Origin: Bacillota bacterium
GTDB taxonomy: Bacteria; Bacillota; Clostridia; Christensenellales; Pumilibacteraceae
Length of the DNA: 49,101 bases
Reading direction: 5' to 3'
NCBI GenBank assembly: GCA_009783515.1
Contig: WRDI01000003.1
Span: forward strand, 1-49,101
Part shown: piece after piece, positions 30,869-38,992 of the stretch
Numbering within the stretch: the first letter of the stretch is position 1
Layout: each line of letters opens with the position of its first letter
Translations under genes and position numbers: made by a program
Notes under the pieces: model-generated
What the model was told of the DNA's origin: nothing
Database searches by the model: none
Seen by the model: only the letters and a program-made list of their open reading frames with translations

Positions 30869-30891
30869 ATTGTCGATATCACAACTCAATA

Positions 30892-30938
30892 AGGACAGTT
30901 CGAAACTCCACCCTGTCATAATAAACAAAACTATGGAA
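30892..30938 (+). promoter_or_regulatory. preQ1-I-type riboswitch aptamer
   Basis: P1 GACAG (30894-30898) pairs with CTGTC (30913-30917) around a loop beginning TTC and ending CCACC. An A-rich tail ATAATAAACAAAACTATGGA follows, and the loop TCCA can pair with the tail TGGA to close an H-type pseudoknot. This is the preQ1-I plan (stem, TTC...ACC loop, stem, AT-AAAA-ACTA tail). The gene downstream is queT, a known partner. A terminator follows directly. The tail is a little longer than the usual consensus. Confidence 0.75.
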
Positions 30939-30973
30939 AAAAACAGGGCGGATTCTACCCTGTTTTTGTTTTT
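30939..30973 (+). terminator. Riboswitch-controlled terminator
   Basis: AAAAACAGGG (30939-30948) pairs with CCCTGTTTTT (30958-30967), then TGTTTTTGTTG. The left arm ACAGGG can instead pair with CCCTGT in the aptamer (30911-30916). Ligand binding, which locks P1, should therefore free the terminator and switch queT off. Confidence 0.78.
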
Positions 30974-30984
30974 GTTGTTTTTTC

Positions 30985-31180
30985 GTCCCGACCTATGTCC
31001 CACACACTGCGGCGGGATTGACACGTCGCTGCTCGCCTCTCTGAGGTCTGCTGTCGCAGACCTTGCAAATCGCAAGCGATTTGTCGGCTCGCTACGCTCC
31101 TCGCAATGACGGCCCCCGCCCTACGACAACCTAACCCCAACCTTAACTCCACACTTCAAACTCCACACTCCACTCTCACA
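30985..31180. repeat. Repeat block inserted between riboswitch and queT
   Basis: The approximately 200 bp hold GAGGTCTGCTGTCGCAGACC and AAATCGCAAGCGATTTG palindromes, a GGCTCGCTACGCTCCTCGCA unit with AATGACGG, a CCCCCGCCCTAC piece, and ACTCCACACTTCAAACTCC (about 31146-31175). These are families common in intergenic regions of this window. It lengthens the leader to about 315 nt. Confidence 0.7.
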
Positions 31181-31190
31181 AAGGACTGCC

Positions 31191-31685
31191 ATGAAAAACC
31201 TCACAACAAGGAAACTGTTGCGCGCCGCCGTTATCGCCGCTCTTTACGCCGCCCTGACGCTGGCTTTCGCGCCTATAAGCTACGGGCCCTTTCAATTCCG
31301 CATAAGCGAAGCTCTCGCTATCCTACCCCTGTTTTGCCCCGAAGCCGTAATCGGTCTTACGATAGGCTGCTTTATTGCGAATACTTTAAGCGCCTACCCA
31401 TGGGACGTCGTTTTCGGCACGCTCGCCACTCTTTGCGCCGCCACGTTAACCTGTCTTATCGGCAAAGGCATGAAAAAGGATTGGCGCGTAGCGGTCGGCA
31501 TTATCCCCCCTATAACCGTCAACGCTTTTGTCGTACCCTTCCTCTTTTTGGCGGCAATCGAGCTAAAAGAATTGTATTTAATAAGCGTTTTGCAGGTGGG
31601 CGGAGGTCAGGCGGCGGTTTTGGTCGCCCTCGGCATCCCCCTTTATTTCGCGCTTAAAAGGGTATCGGACAAGATCTTTAGCTAG
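31191..31685 (+). CDS. queT: QueT-type queuosine-precursor transporter
   Basis: 164 residues, four to five membrane segments; ATG 31191 has AAAGGACTGCC upstream. The segment YGPFQFRISEALAILPLF, followed by GLTIGCFIAN, is the QueT signature. QueT is an ECF-type S component thought to import preQ0/preQ1 or queuine. No ECF ATPase or T subunit is nearby, as usual for shared modules. The preQ1-I-type riboswitch and terminator upstream agree with this role. Confidence 0.92.
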   Translation: MKNLTTRKLLRAAVIAALYAALTLAFAPISYGPFQFRISEALAILPLFCPEAVIGLTIGCFIANTLSAYPWDVVFGTLATLCAATLTCLIGKGMKKDWRVAVGIIPPITVNAFVVPFLFLAAIELKELYLISVLQVGGGQAAVLVALGIPLYFALKRVSDKIFS

Positions 31686-32090: not shown

Positions 32091-32137
32091 TTTGGTGGAG
32101 GTAGTCGGGTTCGAACCGGCGACCTCTTGAATGCCAT
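32091..32137. repeat. Left attachment site (attL), 47 bp
   Basis: Identical to 38486-38532. It is the 3' end of tRNA-Ala from the CCA through the T arm to the anticodon loop (TGGTGGAGG...GAATGCCAT). The match ends at 32138 (A versus T). Only the right copy belongs to a complete tRNA. Confidence 0.93.
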
Positions 32138-32541
32138 ATCTCCCCGAAACCGAAAATAACGTTTTTAACGTCCGTATCTTTGCATAAAATTCATGTTTTT
32201 CGCGGCATTTATAGCGTTTTCAACGTGTTCCTGTAAGTTTCACGTTGTTTCTATAATCCGCTATGTGCACAACTTTTCCGTTTTGCTATAAGTTTTCTTA
32301 GAAAAAATTTATAAAATTTATACACAAAATCAGAACTTTTTTCGATATTCGGCGTTTACCAAAGTCAATTTCCTCACTGCGCAAGCAAATTGTAGCATAA
32401 TTTTGATTTTTTGTCAAGAAATAGCGTCGCCAAAGATAAAGTATCTCCACGATTTTCAATTTGAAAGTGCCTGATATGGGTGCTTTTTTTGCTTTTTCCC
32501 GAAAAAATAGCGAATTTCAGCGAAAAAGCGAAGGAAATTGA
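32138..32541. other. AT-rich gene-free left end of the element
   Basis: 400 bp with no ORF having a ribosome site. It may hold arm-type integrase sites; no clear direct repeats were recognised by eye. Confidence 0.5.
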
Positions 32542-32570
32542 TTGGATTTTGAGAGATAATGTCGTATAAT
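32542..32570 (+). promoter_or_regulatory. Promoter of the BspA lipoprotein gene
   Basis: TTGGAT (32542-32547), 17-bp spacer, TATAAT (32565-32570). The predicted start near 32577 is the first base of the structured leader. Confidence 0.75.
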
Positions 32571-32576
32571 ATAGAC

Positions 32577-32660
32577 GCGACACATTACAAATAGGAAAGT
32601 CTGTCCGAAAATATAGCCAATCGGCTATACTCCCGGACAGGTTTTCCTGTAATGTGTCGC
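32577..32660 (+). ncRNA. Structured RNA leader, three stacked stems
   Basis: Outer stem GCGACACATTACA (32577-32589) with TGTAATGTGTCGC (32648-32660), 13 bp and perfect. Middle stem CTGTCCG (32601-32607) with CGGACAG (32634-32640). Inner stem TATAGCC (32612-32618) with GGCTATA (32623-32629). The transcript should begin exactly at the outer stem, and a terminator follows at 32687. I cannot match it to a named riboswitch class. Confidence 0.65.
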
Positions 32661-32686
32661 AAGCATTTTTGGGGTAGGCTGTGCGG

Positions 32687-32721
32687 AATGCCGCCTCTTA
32701 AATGCAGGCGGCATTTTTCTT
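32687..32721 (+). terminator. Leader terminator (attenuator) before the BspA lipoprotein
   Basis: AATGCCGCCT (32687-32696), 9-nt loop, AGGCGGCATT (32706-32715), then TTTCTTTTTG. It lies 40 nt before the start codon and inside the transcript from the 32565 promoter, so it must be overcome for expression. Confidence 0.85.
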
Positions 32722-32760
32722 TTTGTCGCCGCAAAAAAAACAAAAGCGAGGGAAAACAAA

Positions 32761-35214
32761 ATGAAAAAACTATGGACAAAATTACTCTCGATACTGCTTG
32801 TCGGAGTAATGGTGTTTGGGTTTGCTGCTTGCGGTATTGACGGCAAAGACGGACGGGACGGCACAAACGGTGCGGACGGCAAATCCGCATATCAAATTTG
32901 GCTTGACAACGGTCACAGCGGCACACAAAGCGATTTTCTGAATTGGCTTAGGGGTCAAGACGGAACTAATGGCACTAACGGTACAAATGGCTTGGACGGC
33001 ACCAAAGGCGACCAAGGCGAAAAAGGTGATACAGGCGCAAAGGGCGAGCAAGGTGCAAAAGGCGAGCAAGGCGAAAAAGGCGAAAAAGGTGATACGGGCA
33101 TAAAGGGCGACCAAGGCGCAAAGGGTGACACGGGTGCCAAAGGCGAGGACGGCAAGGACGGGGAAAGCCTGTTTGACATATTTATTCGGCATAATCCCGA
33201 TTATTTAGGCAACGAGGCGCAATGGATAAACGACTATATTGCGGGGCGGCTTGTAAGGTTCACAATCACATTCAAAGCCGCGGGCAGTCCCGACATAGTG
33301 AAAAGCGTCTTTTACGGCTATTCATTAACAGACATTCCCGAAGTCCCCGAACAAGTCAATAATACGGGAACTTGGAATCGTACCGATTTTACCAATATCA
33401 CCGAAAATATTGTCGTAACTGCGATTTATGTCACAAAAGGCTTGTCGTTTCAGCTTATTAACGACAATACGGAATATGTTGTCACGACAGTCAATCTTGA
33501 AAACAATGTAACAGTTTTATCAATCCCGTCCGAGCATTTGGGAAAACCCGTGACGGCTATCGGTTATCAGGCGTTTATGGGGAACACGGGCTTGAAGTCC
33601 GTGGTTGTACCCGATTCCGTAAGGCTGATAGAAAGCCGCGCTTTTTTCGGCTGTAACAATCTTGAAAGTATAACTCTACCTTTTGTCGGGGAACGTCCGA
33701 GCGGCACGGTCAACAGAGCGTTTAACTACATATTTGGCGGTAGTAATAGCAATGTCCCGTCACCGCTAACGGTCATAATTACAGGCGGCGATAATATTCC
33801 AAGTTCTGCATTCAGTTCTTTATCTCAATTAAGAAGCATAACAATCTCCGATAGCGTGACGAGTATCAATGGTGGGGCGTTCTATAATTGCACAAGCCTA
33901 ACCAGTATCACAATCCCCGACGGCGTGACCAGTATCGGCAGTTATGCGTTCAGCGGTTGCACAAGCCTAACCAGTATCACAATCCCCGACAGCGTGACGA
34001 ATATCGGCGGTTCCGCGTTTTCAAGTTGTAATAACATAAGGAGCATAACAATGGGAAGCGGTCTGTCCACCACTGACAATATTCCTATATCAAATCAAAA
34101 TCTAACCGAAATCAATGTCAGCCCACAAAATCAAAATTTCAGTTCAATCGGCGGGGTTTTGTTAAATAAAAATGCGTCCGCACTGATACGTTTTCCTCGC
34201 AACCATACCAACATTGATTATACAATCCCAAACAGCGTCGTTAGCATAGAAGCTGGCGCATTTCAAGACTGCACAAGTCTAACAGGCGTAACGATACATG
34301 ACAGTGTAACGAGTATCAGCAGTAGTGCGTTCAATGGGTGCATCAATCTTAAATTTGAAACGTTTGGCGGCAGTTTAAGGTATTTGAATAATGCTTTAAT
34401 AGGAGTAACAAACACATTTATTACAAGCGCAACGCTAAAATTGACAACTACGGTTATTGCCGACGAAGCTTTTAGCGGGTTAGCTAATTTAGCAAGTATC
34501 ACAATCCCCGACAACGTGACCAGTATCGGCTATTATGCGTTCTCAAATTGCACAAGCCTAACCACTATCACAATCCCTGACGGCGTGACGAGTATCGGCA
34601 ATTATGCGTTCAGCGGTTGCACAAGCCTAACCACTATCACAATCCCTGACAGCGTGACCAGTATCGGCGATGTTGCGTTCTACGGTTGCACAAGCCTAAC
34701 CAGTATCACAATCCCCGACGGCGTGACCAGTATCGGCAGTTATGCGTTCTACGGTTGCACAAGCCTAACCAGTATCACAATCCCCGACGGCGTGACCAGT
34801 ATCGGCGATGTTGCGTTCAGCGGTTGCACAAGCCTAACCAGTATCACAATCCCTGACAGCGTGACCAGTATCAGCAATTCTGCGTTCAGCGGTTGCAGGG
34901 GTTTGACAAGCATTACAATCCCTGACAGCGTGACCAGTATCGGCTATTATGCGTTCAGCGGTTGCAGGGGTTTGACAAGCATTACAATCCCCGACAACGT
35001 GACCAGTATCGGCTATTATGCGTTCTCAAATTGCACAAGCCTAACCACTATCACAATCCCTGACAGCGTGACCAGTATCAGCAATTCTGCGTTCAGTGAC
35101 TGGACTGACGAGCAAACAATAATCGTGCCTTTTGCCGACCAAGCGGCGGCGGACGTGGCGTGGGGCGCGGGTTGGCGTGGCGGTTGCAATGCGATAATTG
35201 CTTATCAGCCCTAA
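32761..35214 (+). CDS. Surface lipoprotein: collagen-like stalk plus BspA leucine-rich repeats
   Basis: 817 residues; ATG 32761 follows GAGGGAAAACAAA. The lipobox is VFGFAAC (C24). Gly-X-Y collagen-like blocks are at 25-40 and 66-135 ([15 protein letters not shown]), split by [21 protein letters not shown], a motif usual in bacterial collagen-like proteins. An InlB_B-like beta domain is at about 165-215. LRR_5/BspA repeats are at about 235-790 ([15 protein letters not shown] units of 23 residues). The protein would be lipid-anchored outside and extend from the cell, binding host or plant material or other cells. It is cargo of the integrative element. The repeats are nearly identical in DNA, so unit number probably varies. 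Confidence 0.9.
34492..35097 (+). repeat. 69-bp tandem repeats in the BspA gene
   Basis: About nine 69-bp units (ATCACAATCCCTGACAGCGT, then GACCAGTATCGGC, TATGCGTTC, GGTTGCACAAGCCTAACC) that differ by only a few bases, for example CGGT/CAAA or AGG/ACA blocks. Less similar units extend back to about 33820. Confidence 0.85.
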
Positions 35215-35295
35215 AATATTATTTTATTATGGTTGTTTCGCCAAATTTAACAGGGCGTATCAATAAAAATTTACAAAAAAAGGAGACTAACTATT

Positions 35296-35910
35296 ATGAC
35301 TATTTTAGAGAAAAAGACATTTTCAGGCGAAAATAAGGTTTTTATTAGCCACGCTCACGCTGACAACGAATTTGCTATACCGTTTGCAGAAATGCTCAAC
35401 AAGCTGGGTGTAAATGCTGTTTTTTGTTCATCAATAGAGGGACAAGGTGTAAAAAACGGAGATAAGATTGAGGAAAGCGTAAGAAATGAGATAGTCCAAG
35501 ACAAAGCATTGCTTTACATATTATCAAGTAATTTTATGATAAGCAATTATTGTTTGGAAGAACTTGGTGCGGGTTGGATTTTACATGACAGTCGAGTACA
35601 AGGGAAACGCCTTTTTCTATTAGGATTACCTGATGTAAATATCAACAGCATTATCGGCTTTATAAATGGTGGGGATAAATTTGCCAATACAAACTCGGAC
35701 AGCTTACTTGCCCTCATTGATGAAATGGAAGCCGAGTTAGGTATAAGTAAAAAAGAAAAGGCAGAAAAAATAGAGATTATTGACGCTTTTTTACAAGCTG
35801 TGAAGCCTTTTTTGTGTGAAGCAAAAAAGAATGTTGATAATGGTTTCAAACCTTTAATTGGCAAATTTGTCGAGTTGAATGATATAGACTGGGAAAAACC
35901 AAAGCAATAA
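35296..35910 (+). CDS. Standalone TIR-domain protein
   Basis: 204 residues; ATG 35296 has AAAGGAGA 9-10 nt upstream. The TIR fold spans about residues 13-130: KVFISHAHADNEFAIPFAEML (strand A, helix A), a BB-loop region GVKNGDKIEESV, YILSSNFMISNYCLEELGAGW with the probable catalytic glutamate of NAD-cleaving TIR proteins, and LFLLGLPDV. A helical C-terminal part of about 70 residues follows. Bacterial TIR proteins commonly act in phage defence as NADases or signal makers. No ThsA-type partner is seen. It is more AT-rich than neighbouring genes, as expected for recently acquired DNA. Confidence 0.88.
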   Translation: MTILEKKTFSGENKVFISHAHADNEFAIPFAEMLNKLGVNAVFCSSIEGQGVKNGDKIEESVRNEIVQDKALLYILSSNFMISNYCLEELGAGWILHDSRVQGKRLFLLGLPDVNINSIIGFINGGDKFANTNSDSLLALIDEMEAELGISKKEKAEKIEIIDAFLQAVKPFLCEAKKNVDNGFKPLIGKFVELNDIDWEKPKQ

Positions 35911-36161
35911 ACAGTCAAATTTTCTATAAATTAAGGCTTTTCAAAATCGGGTAGCTGTGTCCCCGACCGATACGGCTATTTTGGCGTGTATCCCAAACTA
36001 AACAATAAGTTGGGGCGGAGCTTACCGCAAAGCCTCGAAAAGGGCGGATCAATATAACCAATAACAGGAGCAAAAGCGATAGAGAAAAGGCGGCGAGAAA
36101 GCTGTTAGACGCTGATATAATCAAATTTTGTGATTATTTCAAGTGTAAAGAGCCCATTATT

Positions 36162-36635
36162 ATGGGCGACCACAGTATCAGCGTCAAGGGCGAGTCCTTT
36201 GGCAGATGTCCCGCGCCACAGCAGATAATATTCGGTATGTTTGCGCTGTTGACAGGGAGTGGATTTGACGAAGTTCACATGGGTGTGGTGTTAGGCGATT
36301 CCATGTATGGCTCGACTTTCAATGAAAAATTGGTTGAGGTTTGTAGAAATGCTTTTATTCCGAGATTTCCCAAAATATTTTACCCTATCCAGGAAGTCTG
36401 CAAGGAGGCGATTTATCTGACTTTGCAAGGGTATGACGAGCTAATCGGCACAAATTTTATCAAAAATCTTACCTGTTGCGAGAGCGTAAAAACCCCTTGT
36501 GACAAAATTAAAGAATGCCAACCTTGCAAAACCCAATTAGAGGTTTTCAAGAGATTAAAATGGGTATGCGACCCACCACCAAAAAAGGCATCTAAGAAAT
36601 CGGCTGAAAAGCCCCGTGACGCAAATAATTTATAA
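36162..36635 (+). CDS. C-terminal half of a QueC-like (7-cyano-7-deazaguanine synthase-like) protein
   Basis: 157 residues from ATG 36162; the frame is open back to 36009 (ADIIKFCDYFKCKEPIIMGD) but has no good start. It resembles the C-terminal half of QueC: PAPQQIIFGMFALLTGSG matches the NLLFLSFAA helix, HMGVVLGDS follows, and the zinc motif is CCESVKTPC...ECQPCKTQLEVF. The N-terminal ATP-pyrophosphatase motif SGGxDS is absent; about 250 bp upstream contain stops in all frames. It is therefore truncated or a pseudogene. QueC-like proteins also occur in Qat and type IV CBASS defence, which fits the adjacent TIR gene. Confidence 0.6.
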   Translation: MGDHSISVKGESFGRCPAPQQIIFGMFALLTGSGFDEVHMGVVLGDSMYGSTFNEKLVEVCRNAFIPRFPKIFYPIQEVCKEAIYLTLQGYDELIGTNFIKNLTCCESVKTPCDKIKECQPCKTQLEVFKRLKWVCDPPPKKASKKSAEKPRDANNL

Positions 36636-36661
36636 TGTATTATAAAGGAAATGTGTGAAAA

Positions 36662-37012
36662 ATGAATGTTTCAATGAAGAAAATGGACGAAATTTTCCAA
36701 GAAGCCCAACGAGAGGCGCACCTTGATTACGCCCGTATTGACGGGATATGCTGCCCAAGCTGTACTGACGCCGAACTTATTGCTTTGTACGGCGAGGACT
36801 CAAAGGGCATTTGGATAAAATGGTTTTCTTACGGGGCGAATAAAAGTCGTTGGAGTGAACAAGACGAATTTTATATCGCTCACGACCTTACCGACGAGCA
36901 AAGGGGCAAGGTGATTGAAGTCCTAAGCCGTTGTTTTCAAGTAGATTTTAACGGCGACAAAAGCAAATGTATCAAAATCGCCGCGCCGCGAGCATACGTC
37001 AAAAAAGAATAA
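36662..37012 (+). CDS. DUF6891-like small protein
   Basis: 116 residues. GICCPSCTDAELIALYGEDS followed by a GIWIKWFSYG strand, and a long C-terminal helix-strand unit (LTDEQRGKVIEVLSRCFQVD), recall DUF6891, whose function is unknown. AAAGGAA lies about 12 nt before ATG 36662; the later ATGs at residues 5 and 8 are alternatives. The integrase gene starts 13 nt after its stop, so the two are probably co-transcribed. Confidence 0.6.
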   Translation: MNVSMKKMDEIFQEAQREAHLDYARIDGICCPSCTDAELIALYGEDSKGIWIKWFSYGANKSRWSEQDEFYIAHDLTDEQRGKVIEVLSRCFQVDFNGDKSKCIKIAAPRAYVKKE

Positions 37013-37025
37013 AAAGGAGGCTCTT

Positions 37026-38447
37026 ATGCACATCAAAGAGCCGCGCAAAAATAAAAACGGGAGCGTGTCCTATCAGTTTTATTGTATGGGACGCGACCCT
37101 AAAACGCGCAAAAATAAGCTATATCAAAAAACGTATCAGCTCCCCGCAGACTGCATAGGGAAAAAGGCTGTTGACAAATTCCTGTTAGACCGTCAAAAGG
37201 AGTTCCAAGACGAAGTGGAAAAACTGTCGCTTGGATTGGTCGTCAAGCGGGAAAAAATCAAATTTAGTGATTTCGCCGCCGAAGTCGTCGAAGGAATTTT
37301 AAAGCAAAACCCCGAAGCCTATCTATACTACAACGCGAGCAAAAACAATCTGAAAACCGTCAATGACAAATTGGGGCATTACTATCTGCATGAGATAAAT
37401 CAATTTATTATTCAAGATTTTTGCGCCTATATCAACCAACGGACTTATACCAAAACGGTCTTAACCGTCAAGAAAAGTCTGCGCCCGATTCTTAAAGAGC
37501 GCAAATTGACCTATGAAAAGGCGGCTGAGGGGAGCGGCATAGCGTATATAACGGTTCAAACCGTCTTAAAAGTCGGCAATAATGTAAGCTCCGACACGGC
37601 GACAAAATTTTGCTCATTTTTAGAAGTGCCGATAAGCAAGTATTTTAGCGTGGAAACAGAGGAATCACCCTATTCCCGCAGTGCAAATACTGGCTTAAAG
37701 GCTCTTGTGAGCAAAATTTTATCCAAAGCCGTCAAACGCGGGTATATCGAGCGTAATTATGCTTTGAGCGAGTTTACCGACCCCGTGACGGGGACGGAGG
37801 GCGAGAGGGCAATCTTTGAAACCGCAGACGAATTGCAAAAATTCATGCAATGCGTTAATGCCGAAAAGGATATTCGCAAAAAGGCGGCGTTTTCCATTCT
37901 GCTGTATATGGGGCTTCGTATAGGCGAGGTTTTGGGGCTTGAATGGTCGGATTTTAATTTTGACACGGACGAGATTGCTATTAGGCGGCAAAGCGGGTAT
38001 GCGGGTAAGGAGTTCGGGGTTATCACAAAAGCCCCCAAGACAAAATGCTCACAGGCAGTTTTGACCGCTCCGCAGGGCTTAATGGCGTTAATGCAAGAAT
38101 ATAGGGCTTGGTGGACGAAGCAAAAAATCCTTCACGGGGATTTGTGGGAAAACACGGATAGACTTTTTTGCCAAGATAGCGGCAAGAATATGGCAAGTTC
38201 GACGGTAAGAGAATGGTTGATTGCTTTTGAGCAAAAAAACGGGCTAAAACACGTTACGCCCCACGGCTTACGTCACACCAACATCACCCTGCAAATTGAC
38301 AACGGAGTGGATGTTAAGACGGTTTCGGCGCGGGCAAGGCACGCGAAAGTCCAAACCACGCTTGACGTATATATGCACCGCACGGCACGCGCCGACAAAC
38401 AGGCGGCAAATATCATTGACAAGGTGTTGACGCTCCAAAACGCCTGA
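37026..38447 (+). CDS. Tyrosine recombinase (element integrase) with inserted HTH domain
   Basis: 473 residues; ATG 37026 follows a perfect AAGGAGG site. An N-terminal arm-binding region (1-65), core-binding helices (75-145), and then an XRE-like helix-turn-helix segment (about 147-207, RPILKERKLTYEKAAEGSGI...TVQTVLK) lie between the core-binding and catalytic parts. The catalytic domain (about 260-465) has R298 (GLRIGE), a lysine in KAPKTK (336-340), H413 and R416 (HGLRHT), H439, and nucleophile Y449 (TTLDVYMH). All are present, so it should be active. It recombines the tRNA-Ala 3' end 40 bp downstream. Confidence 0.95.
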   Translation: MHIKEPRKNKNGSVSYQFYCMGRDPKTRKNKLYQKTYQLPADCIGKKAVDKFLLDRQKEFQDEVEKLSLGLVVKREKIKFSDFAAEVVEGILKQNPEAYLYYNASKNNLKTVNDKLGHYYLHEINQFIIQDFCAYINQRTYTKTVLTVKKSLRPILKERKLTYEKAAEGSGIAYITVQTVLKVGNNVSSDTATKFCSFLEVPISKYFSVETEESPYSRSANTGLKALVSKILSKAVKRGYIERNYALSEFTDPVTGTEGERAIFETADELQKFMQCVNAEKDIRKKAAFSILLYMGLRIGEVLGLEWSDFNFDTDEIAIRRQSGYAGKEFGVITKAPKTKCSQAVLTAPQGLMALMQEYRAWWTKQKILHGDLWENTDRLFCQDSGKNMASSTVREWLIAFEQKNGLKHVTPHGLRHTNITLQIDNGVDVKTVSARARHAKVQTTLDVYMHRTARADKQAANIIDKVLTLQNA

Positions 38448-38452
38448 CAACA

Positions 38453-38481
38453 AAAAAGCACCCGTAAAAAGGTGCTTTTTC
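38453..38481. terminator. Terminator at the right end of the element
   Basis: AAAAAGCACC (38453-38462), 8-nt loop, GGTGCTTTTT (38471-38480). It ends the integrase transcript and, on the other strand, gives the tRNA gene a new terminator in place of the one displaced to 32034-32083. Confidence 0.85.
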
Positions 38482-38485
38482 GCTT

Positions 38486-38563
<78 letters not shown>

Positions 38564-38701
38564 AAAAAAATAGGGTTTTTCAGAAAAATTTTATAAAGTT
38601 TTTATAACGATTTTTGTGAACGCCTCAAAATCAGTGAAAAACGGCTTAAAATAGGGCTTTTTTAGGTAAATATACGGCATTTTAGGCAGTATGCTTTATA
38701 T

Positions 38702-38750
38702 GACCTCTTATATGCCATTCAGGCGCTCTACCAACTGAGCTATATCCCCA
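38702..38750 (-). pseudogene. tRNA-Ala 5'-half relic 1
   Basis: On the minus strand, GGGGATATAGCTCAGTTGGT and the following bases to the anticodon loop and GAGGTC match the tRNA with a few changes. The T arm and acceptor 3' strand are missing. The upstream 140 bp also resemble those before the intact gene, so the whole 5' part is repeated in tandem. Confidence 0.8.
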
Positions 38751-38878
38751 AAAAAATAGATTTTTTTCAGACTTTTTTTATAACGATTTTTGTGAACGCC
38801 GCAAAGATACCGAAAAAAGGCTTAAAACACGGGCTTTCTAGGTAGATTAACGGTATTTTCGACAATATTACTTAGTAT

Positions 38879-38925
38879 GACCTCTTATATGCCATCAAGC
38901 ACTCTGCCAACTGAGCCATATCCCA
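38879..38925 (-). pseudogene. tRNA-Ala 5'-half relic 2
   Basis: GGGATATGGCTCAGTTGGCA and GAGTGCTTGATGGCAT are a more diverged second half-copy, truncated at the same place (GAGGTC). The repeat unit is about 180 bp (38516-38701, 38702-38878). Confidence 0.75.
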
Positions 38926-38992
38926 AAAAAGACCACCATTCGAATCATACCAATTTACAAAACAGTCTGTCGTTATTATATTCAAAAAAAGA

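What the first reader, a model, noticed from the sequence alone, without database searches (positions are those of the whole stretch)
35296..36635. TIR protein beside a QueC-like protein: possible eroded defence system
The TIR protein keeps the CLEEL glutamate expected for NAD cleavage. The neighbour keeps the QueC zinc motif and dinucleotide-site helix but has lost the N-terminal ATP-binding half. QueC-like proteins occur in Qat and type IV CBASS systems, where deazaguanine chemistry modifies a partner. A TIR-QueC pair could be a remnant of, or a minimal variant on, such a system.
Basis: inference. Interest (0 to 1): 0.68.

Follow-up and report, generated by a model that had tools for sequence, protein, structure and literature searches.

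The report
Mobile element with TIR, QueC remnant
A small piece of mobile DNA inserted in a transfer-RNA gene carries an intact TIR immune-type gene next to the broken end of a queuosine-type enzyme gene; the two look like neighbours by accident of cargo exchange, so this is probably an ordinary gene scar and not a new defence system.

Summary
Both genes are real. 35296-35910 encodes a complete TIR-only protein closest to SpbK, with the NADase glutamate in place. The next frame is a very divergent QueC-like protein: of 38,880 PHROG families only the QueC family rings (E=0.004), collinear with QueC from about residue 38 to the zinc end. Pfam, NCBIfam, PADLOC and PDB sequences do not detect it. 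What is missing is about the first 38 residues, including the SGGxDS ATP loop. No such motif exists in any frame of the element. Coding signal starts about 110 nt upstream of the first start codon, so the gene is 5'-truncated. The pair lies inside a 6.4-kb integrated element: the tRNA-Ala 3' end is repeated perfectly over 47 bp at 32091-32137 and 38486-38532, enclosing a BspA-like surface protein, TIR, the QueC remnant, a 116-aa ORF and a tyrosine integrase. TIR has clearly lower GC than the QueC-ORF116-integrase part, TIR relatives have no QueC neighbour, no QatB, CD-NTase or QatA lies in the element, and QueC and QueD were not found in the host draft genome. Best reading: cargo exchange beside an integrase left a QueC pseudogene next to an unrelated TIR gene. 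Interest is low.

The parts
32091..32137 (.). attL: perfect 47-bp copy of the tRNA-Ala 3' end; left edge of the integrated element
   Evidence: exact direct repeat with 38486-38532
32761..35214 (+). collagen-like + BspA-type LRR surface lipoprotein gene, cargo of the element
   Evidence: LRR_5 E=2.7e-139, Collagen E=8.2e-12
35296..35910 (+). TIR-only protein, SpbK-type TIR domain without the SpbK N-terminal sensor domain; intact, with strong ribosome-binding site AAAGGAG
   Evidence: PF13676 E=1.5e-10; PADLOC spbK residues 11-170 vs profile 147-306/308; PDB 9phb E=6e-9; RBS seen
35911..36050 (+). stretch without coding signal in the QueC frame and without any SGGxDS motif; the place where the first ~38 QueC residues should be
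36009..36635 (+). 5'-truncated QueC-like gene; open frame from 36009, coding signal from ~36050, first ATG/GTG/TTG only at 36162
   Evidence: phrog_1550 E=0.004, residues 22-201 vs profile 183-367; codon usage; no start codon in 36009-36161
36662..37012 (+). 116-aa ORF of unknown function upstream of the integrase
   Evidence: no family hit; no relative in 200 genomes
37026..38447 (+). tyrosine integrase (with an internal HTH-like segment)
   Evidence: PF00589 E=1.6e-23; phrog_1 E=1.9e-46; related copies at tRNA genes
38486..38532 (.). attR inside the tRNA-Ala gene; right edge of the element
38488..38563 (-). tRNA-Ala(ggc), integration site
   Evidence: ARAGORN, Rfam tRNA

Best explanation
The region is a 6.4-kb integrative element that entered the 3' end of a tRNA-Ala gene by its own tyrosine integrase (shown by the 47-bp duplication and gene layout). 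Next to the integrase lies an exchangeable cargo slot (inferred). The slot once held a QueC-family gene (inferred). A later exchange placed a lower-GC TIR gene, and perhaps the BspA-like gene, into the slot and cut off the first ~38 codons of the QueC-like gene, leaving a pseudogene without the ATP-binding loop (truncation shown, order of events inferred). If anything works here today it is the TIR protein alone: an NAD+-cleaving TIR of the SpbK kind (inferred from homology) that would need a trigger or partner not seen in the element.
For: Perfect 47-bp repeat at tRNA-Ala and integrase at that edge; QueC hit only from residue ~38 onward, collinear to the zinc end; coding signal starts at ~36050 but the first start codon is at 36162 with a poor ribosome-binding site, while TIR and the integrase have strong ones; no SGGxDS in any frame of the element; TIR GC 35% and GC3 0.32 against 43-46% and 0.47-0.54 for QueC-like, ORF116 and integrase; TIR relatives lack a QueC neighbour; integrase relatives in the same genome and another genome sit at other tRNA genes with different cargo; canonical QueC and QueD not detected in the host draft.
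Against: No intact relative of the QueC-like gene was found, so the ancestral full-length gene is inferred. The frame from 36009 to 36635 has no stop or frameshift, so decay is recent or the shorter protein is kept. The QueC assignment rests on one family hit at E=0.004 plus cysteine layout. The host genome is 86% complete, so absence of QueC/QueD is not firm.
Confidence: 0.7

Rival explanations
1. A remnant of a real TIR-QueC defence system in which a QueC-like ligase once modified the TIR protein or a lost partner, analogous to Qat or type IV CBASS.
For: Both genes are adjacent, same strand, in a mobile element; QueC-family proteins act in two defence systems (PMC13279940, PMC13329287); the 'CES....PC' start of the cysteine cluster resembles Cap9 by eye.
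Against: Composition differs between the genes; no co-occurrence in TIR relatives; no QatB/CD-NTase in the element; the TIR N-terminus is MTIL, not the MGGS/MGTS glycine motif of known QueC-ligase substrates (PMC13279940; sequence); the Cap9 resemblance is no better than shuffles.
Confidence: 0.12
2. A functional pair: the TIR works with a QueC-like protein that has shed its ATP loop and acts as a binding or zinc module.
For: Open frame of 157-208 aa without stops, codon usage still gene-like; two genes in tandem.
Against: No relative of the short form found in any collection; the QueC-family branches described in detail keep SGGxDS (PMC13329287); the only usable start codon lies inside the homologous region with a weak ribosome-binding site.
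Confidence: 0.05
3. The 36162-36635 protein is not related to QueC; the cysteine cluster and the PHROG hit are chance.
For: Pfam, NCBIfam, PADLOC, PDB sequence searches negative; hhalign against a 38-sequence QueC alignment only E=0.01, probability 4%; unusual cysteine spacing; alignment to the C-terminal part of Cap9 no better than shuffles; single-sequence fold uninformative.
Against: It is the only family of 38,880 that matches, full-length and collinear, reversed control negative; 12 of 2000 shuffles reach the QueC profile score.
Confidence: 0.13

Closest known systems
SpbK (Bacillus subtilis TIR NADase; PMC12847820)
   Same: TIR domain and C-terminal stretch, active-site glutamate position (CLNE/CLEE), carried on a mobile element
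   Different: Lacks the ~94-residue N-terminal domain that binds the phage portal; 204 aa, TIR from residue ~11
ThsB (Thoeris TIR protein)
   Same: TIR-only protein of similar length
   Different: Sequence is further than SpbK (PADLOC E=7.6e-7 against 1.8e-22); no ThsA next to it
QueC family PF06508 (canonical QueC, QatC, Cap9; PMC13329287, PMC13279940)
   Same: Collinear match from residue ~38 to the C-terminus; cysteine cluster near the C-terminus; P-x4-C/T-K segment
   Different: No SGGxDS ATP loop, VPxRN and YPDC motifs altered or absent, cysteine spacing C-x6/7-C-x5-C-x2-C, below every curated cut-off
tRNA-integrated small genomic islands / integrative elements with tyrosine integrase
   Same: Integrase at the tRNA edge, duplicated tRNA 3' end, short cargo
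   Different: Only five genes; cargo is a BspA-like surface protein, a TIR gene and a QueC remnant

Membership tests
QueC family PF06508 | Profile match above the curated cut-off | tested here: not met
   No Pfam hit up to E=5-10
QueC family PF06508 | SGGxDS ATP-binding loop | tested here: not met
   Absent in all six frames of 32091-38532
QueC family PF06508 | C-terminal zinc cysteines C-x8-C-x2-C-x2-C | tested here: inconclusive
   Four cysteines in order but C-x6/7-C-x5-C-x2-C (sequence; aligned)
QueC-like, wider (PHROG phrog_1550) | Remote-homology profile match | tested here: met
   E=0.004 over residues 22-201, reversed control negative
Qat system (qatABCD) | QatB with N-terminal MGTS, QatA ATPase, QatD TatD DNase beside QatC | tested here: not met
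   Element holds only BspA-like, TIR, QueC remnant, ORF116, integrase; no PADLOC Qat hit
Type IV CBASS | CD-NTase with MGGS N-terminus next to Cap9 | tested here: not met
   No CD-NTase among element genes; a true Cap9 locus in plasmids shows it clearly
SpbK | C-terminal TIR NADase domain | tested here: met
   PADLOC E=1.8e-22, 9phb E=6e-9 with glutamate aligned
SpbK | N-terminal portal-binding domain | tested here: not met
   TIR begins at residue ~11 and matches profile only from 147/308; frame open only 15 codons upstream
TIR NADase | NAD+ cleavage activity | not testable with these tools
   Needs biochemistry
Thoeris | ThsA effector in the genome | tested here: inconclusive
   No STALD domain found in the draft genome, but the control genomes do not ring either
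tRNA-integrated element | Duplicated tRNA 3' end at both edges with integrase at one edge | tested here: met
   47/47 bp

The most novel reading that the evidence does not exclude
A two-gene defence unit in which a sensor-less TIR NADase is controlled by a QueC-derived protein that has given up ATP-dependent chemistry and uses only its zinc-bearing C-terminal fold to sense or bind.
Probability: 0.04. Interest if true: 0.7.

Novelty: new member of a known kind. Interest (0 to 1): 0.2.

Why it matters
It is mainly a caution: adjacency of a TIR gene and a QueC fragment beside an integrase is expected from cargo turnover and should not be read as a system without linked relatives. It also records a small tRNA-Ala element with a TIR gene in a poorly sampled lineage with a small genome.

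Tried and rejected
Frameshift in 35911-36161: rejected, no frame there carries the missing N-terminus. Homologues of the QueC-like piece: none in own genome, 101 relatives, 396 genomes of the order, plasmids, phages, 3 viral scans, 2 genome-contig scans including degenerate patterns made with artificial variants of the query used only for pattern search; two weak hits in the order were unrelated proteins. AlphaFold2 single sequence: pLDDT 37, not used. Cap9 membership: the resemblance of 'CES....PC' did not survive a shuffle test on the C-terminal part. Repeat or MITE origin of the 35911-36050 stretch: no other copy in the genome or in phages, and its longest open peptide finds nothing in plasmids. 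Integrase and ORF116 relatives in viral contigs: none. Integrase relatives in ten loci carry neither TIR nor QueC-like genes.

Full report
What is there. The window is contig C3 of an unnamed 1.49-Mb, 86%-complete genome. ORF 35296-35910 is a TIR protein: TIR_2 E=1.5e-10, nearest defence model SpbK E=1.8e-22 over residues 11-170 against profile positions 147-306 of 308, nearest solved structure SpbK 9phb E=6e-9. In that alignment CLEEL of the window falls on CLNEM of SpbK, where E192 was one of the residues mutated in the SpbK study (PMC12847820; numbering by my reading of N191, G194 and W197 in the same segment). The protein lacks the SpbK N-terminal domain that binds the phage portal (PMC12847820).

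The neighbour. The frame 36009-36635 (first ATG at 36162) gives no hit in Pfam, NCBIfam, PADLOC or PDB sequences. One PHROG family of 38,880 matches, phrog_1550 'QueC-like queuosine biosynthesis', E=0.004, residues 22-201 against positions 183-367. A genuine QueC from a relative occupies 146-361 of the same profile, so the match begins near QueC residue 38 and runs to the zinc end. Starting from the ATG the hit is E=0.009, the reversed sequence does not match, and 12 of 2000 shuffles reach its score against my own QueC profile. I take it as a divergent QueC-family protein with about 85-90% confidence.

Truncation. Codon-usage scores in the QueC frame are negative through 35910-36000 and turn positive from about 36050-36060. 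There is no ATG, GTG or TTG between 36009 and 36161; the ATG at 36162 has only a weak upstream AAAGAG, while the TIR and integrase genes have AAAGGAG and AAAGGAGG. No SGGxDS-like motif occurs in any frame of the whole element. The ATP loop is conserved in the QueC-family clusters examined in detail by Libby and colleagues, including QatC and Cap9 (PMC13329287). So an ATP-dependent ligase activity is very unlikely.

Surroundings. A perfect 47-bp direct repeat of the tRNA-Ala(ggc) 3' end lies at 32091-32137 and 38486-38532, the second inside the tRNA gene. Between them are a collagen-like/BspA-LRR surface protein, TIR, the QueC remnant, a 116-aa ORF without known family and a tyrosine integrase. 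Identity of the unselected copy suggests a recent insertion (inference). Related integrases in the same genome (C14, 49% identity) and in another genome of the order (40%) also adjoin tRNA genes, with other cargo.

Are TIR and QueC a unit? TIR GC is 35.3% (GC3 0.32), the QueC-like gene 43.0% (0.47), ORF116 44.7%, the integrase 46.1% (0.54); the difference TIR against QueC-like has z=2.6, against the integrase z=4.5. Eleven TIR relatives in the order and six on plasmids have no QueC gene near. No QatB, QatA, QatD or CD-NTase lies in the element; a real Cap9 locus fetched for comparison shows its CD-NTase two genes away. QueC-family defence ligases use 7-carboxy-7-deazaguanine (PMC13279940); canonical QueC and QueD were not detected in this genome, which instead has a QueT salvage transporter at 31191-31685 (E=6.4e-43) with a weak preQ1-riboswitch match upstream. 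The draft is incomplete, so this point is supportive only.

Conclusion. The economical account is cargo exchange next to an integrase: a TIR gene now sits where the front of a QueC-like gene was. The TIR may be a working NADase; that it works with the QueC remnant has no support beyond adjacency.

Noticed in passing
30890-31685: QueT transporter (PF06177 E=6.4e-43) with a sub-threshold PreQ1 riboswitch match at 30890-30940 (23.5 bits, E=0.25); a 50-bp stretch there is conserved in the only same-genus genome (L078). It lies just outside the element, so it is host salvage, not part of the finding.
   Followed up: partly
L104:10829-13814: In another genome of the order, the related integrase (40% identity) next to tRNA-Thr is preceded by an ORF resembling a gokushovirus (Microviridae) VP4 replication initiator: possibly an integrated microvirus or rolling-circle element. 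Judged by eye only.
   Followed up: no
38599-38930: Two further degenerate copies of the tRNA-Ala 5' half with flanking repeats lie to the right of the tRNA gene (repeat families D3, D4, D6), suggesting repeated insertion or duplication at this site.
   Followed up: no
37026-38447: The integrase carries an internal Cro/C1-type HTH-like segment (residues ~152-204, PF13443 E=0.022) between its SAM-like and catalytic domains.
   Followed up: no
L114:2183-4327: Halococcus plasmid queC split by an ISH3 transposase, leaving a QueC piece without ATP loop: an independent example of the same kind of decay.
   Followed up: no
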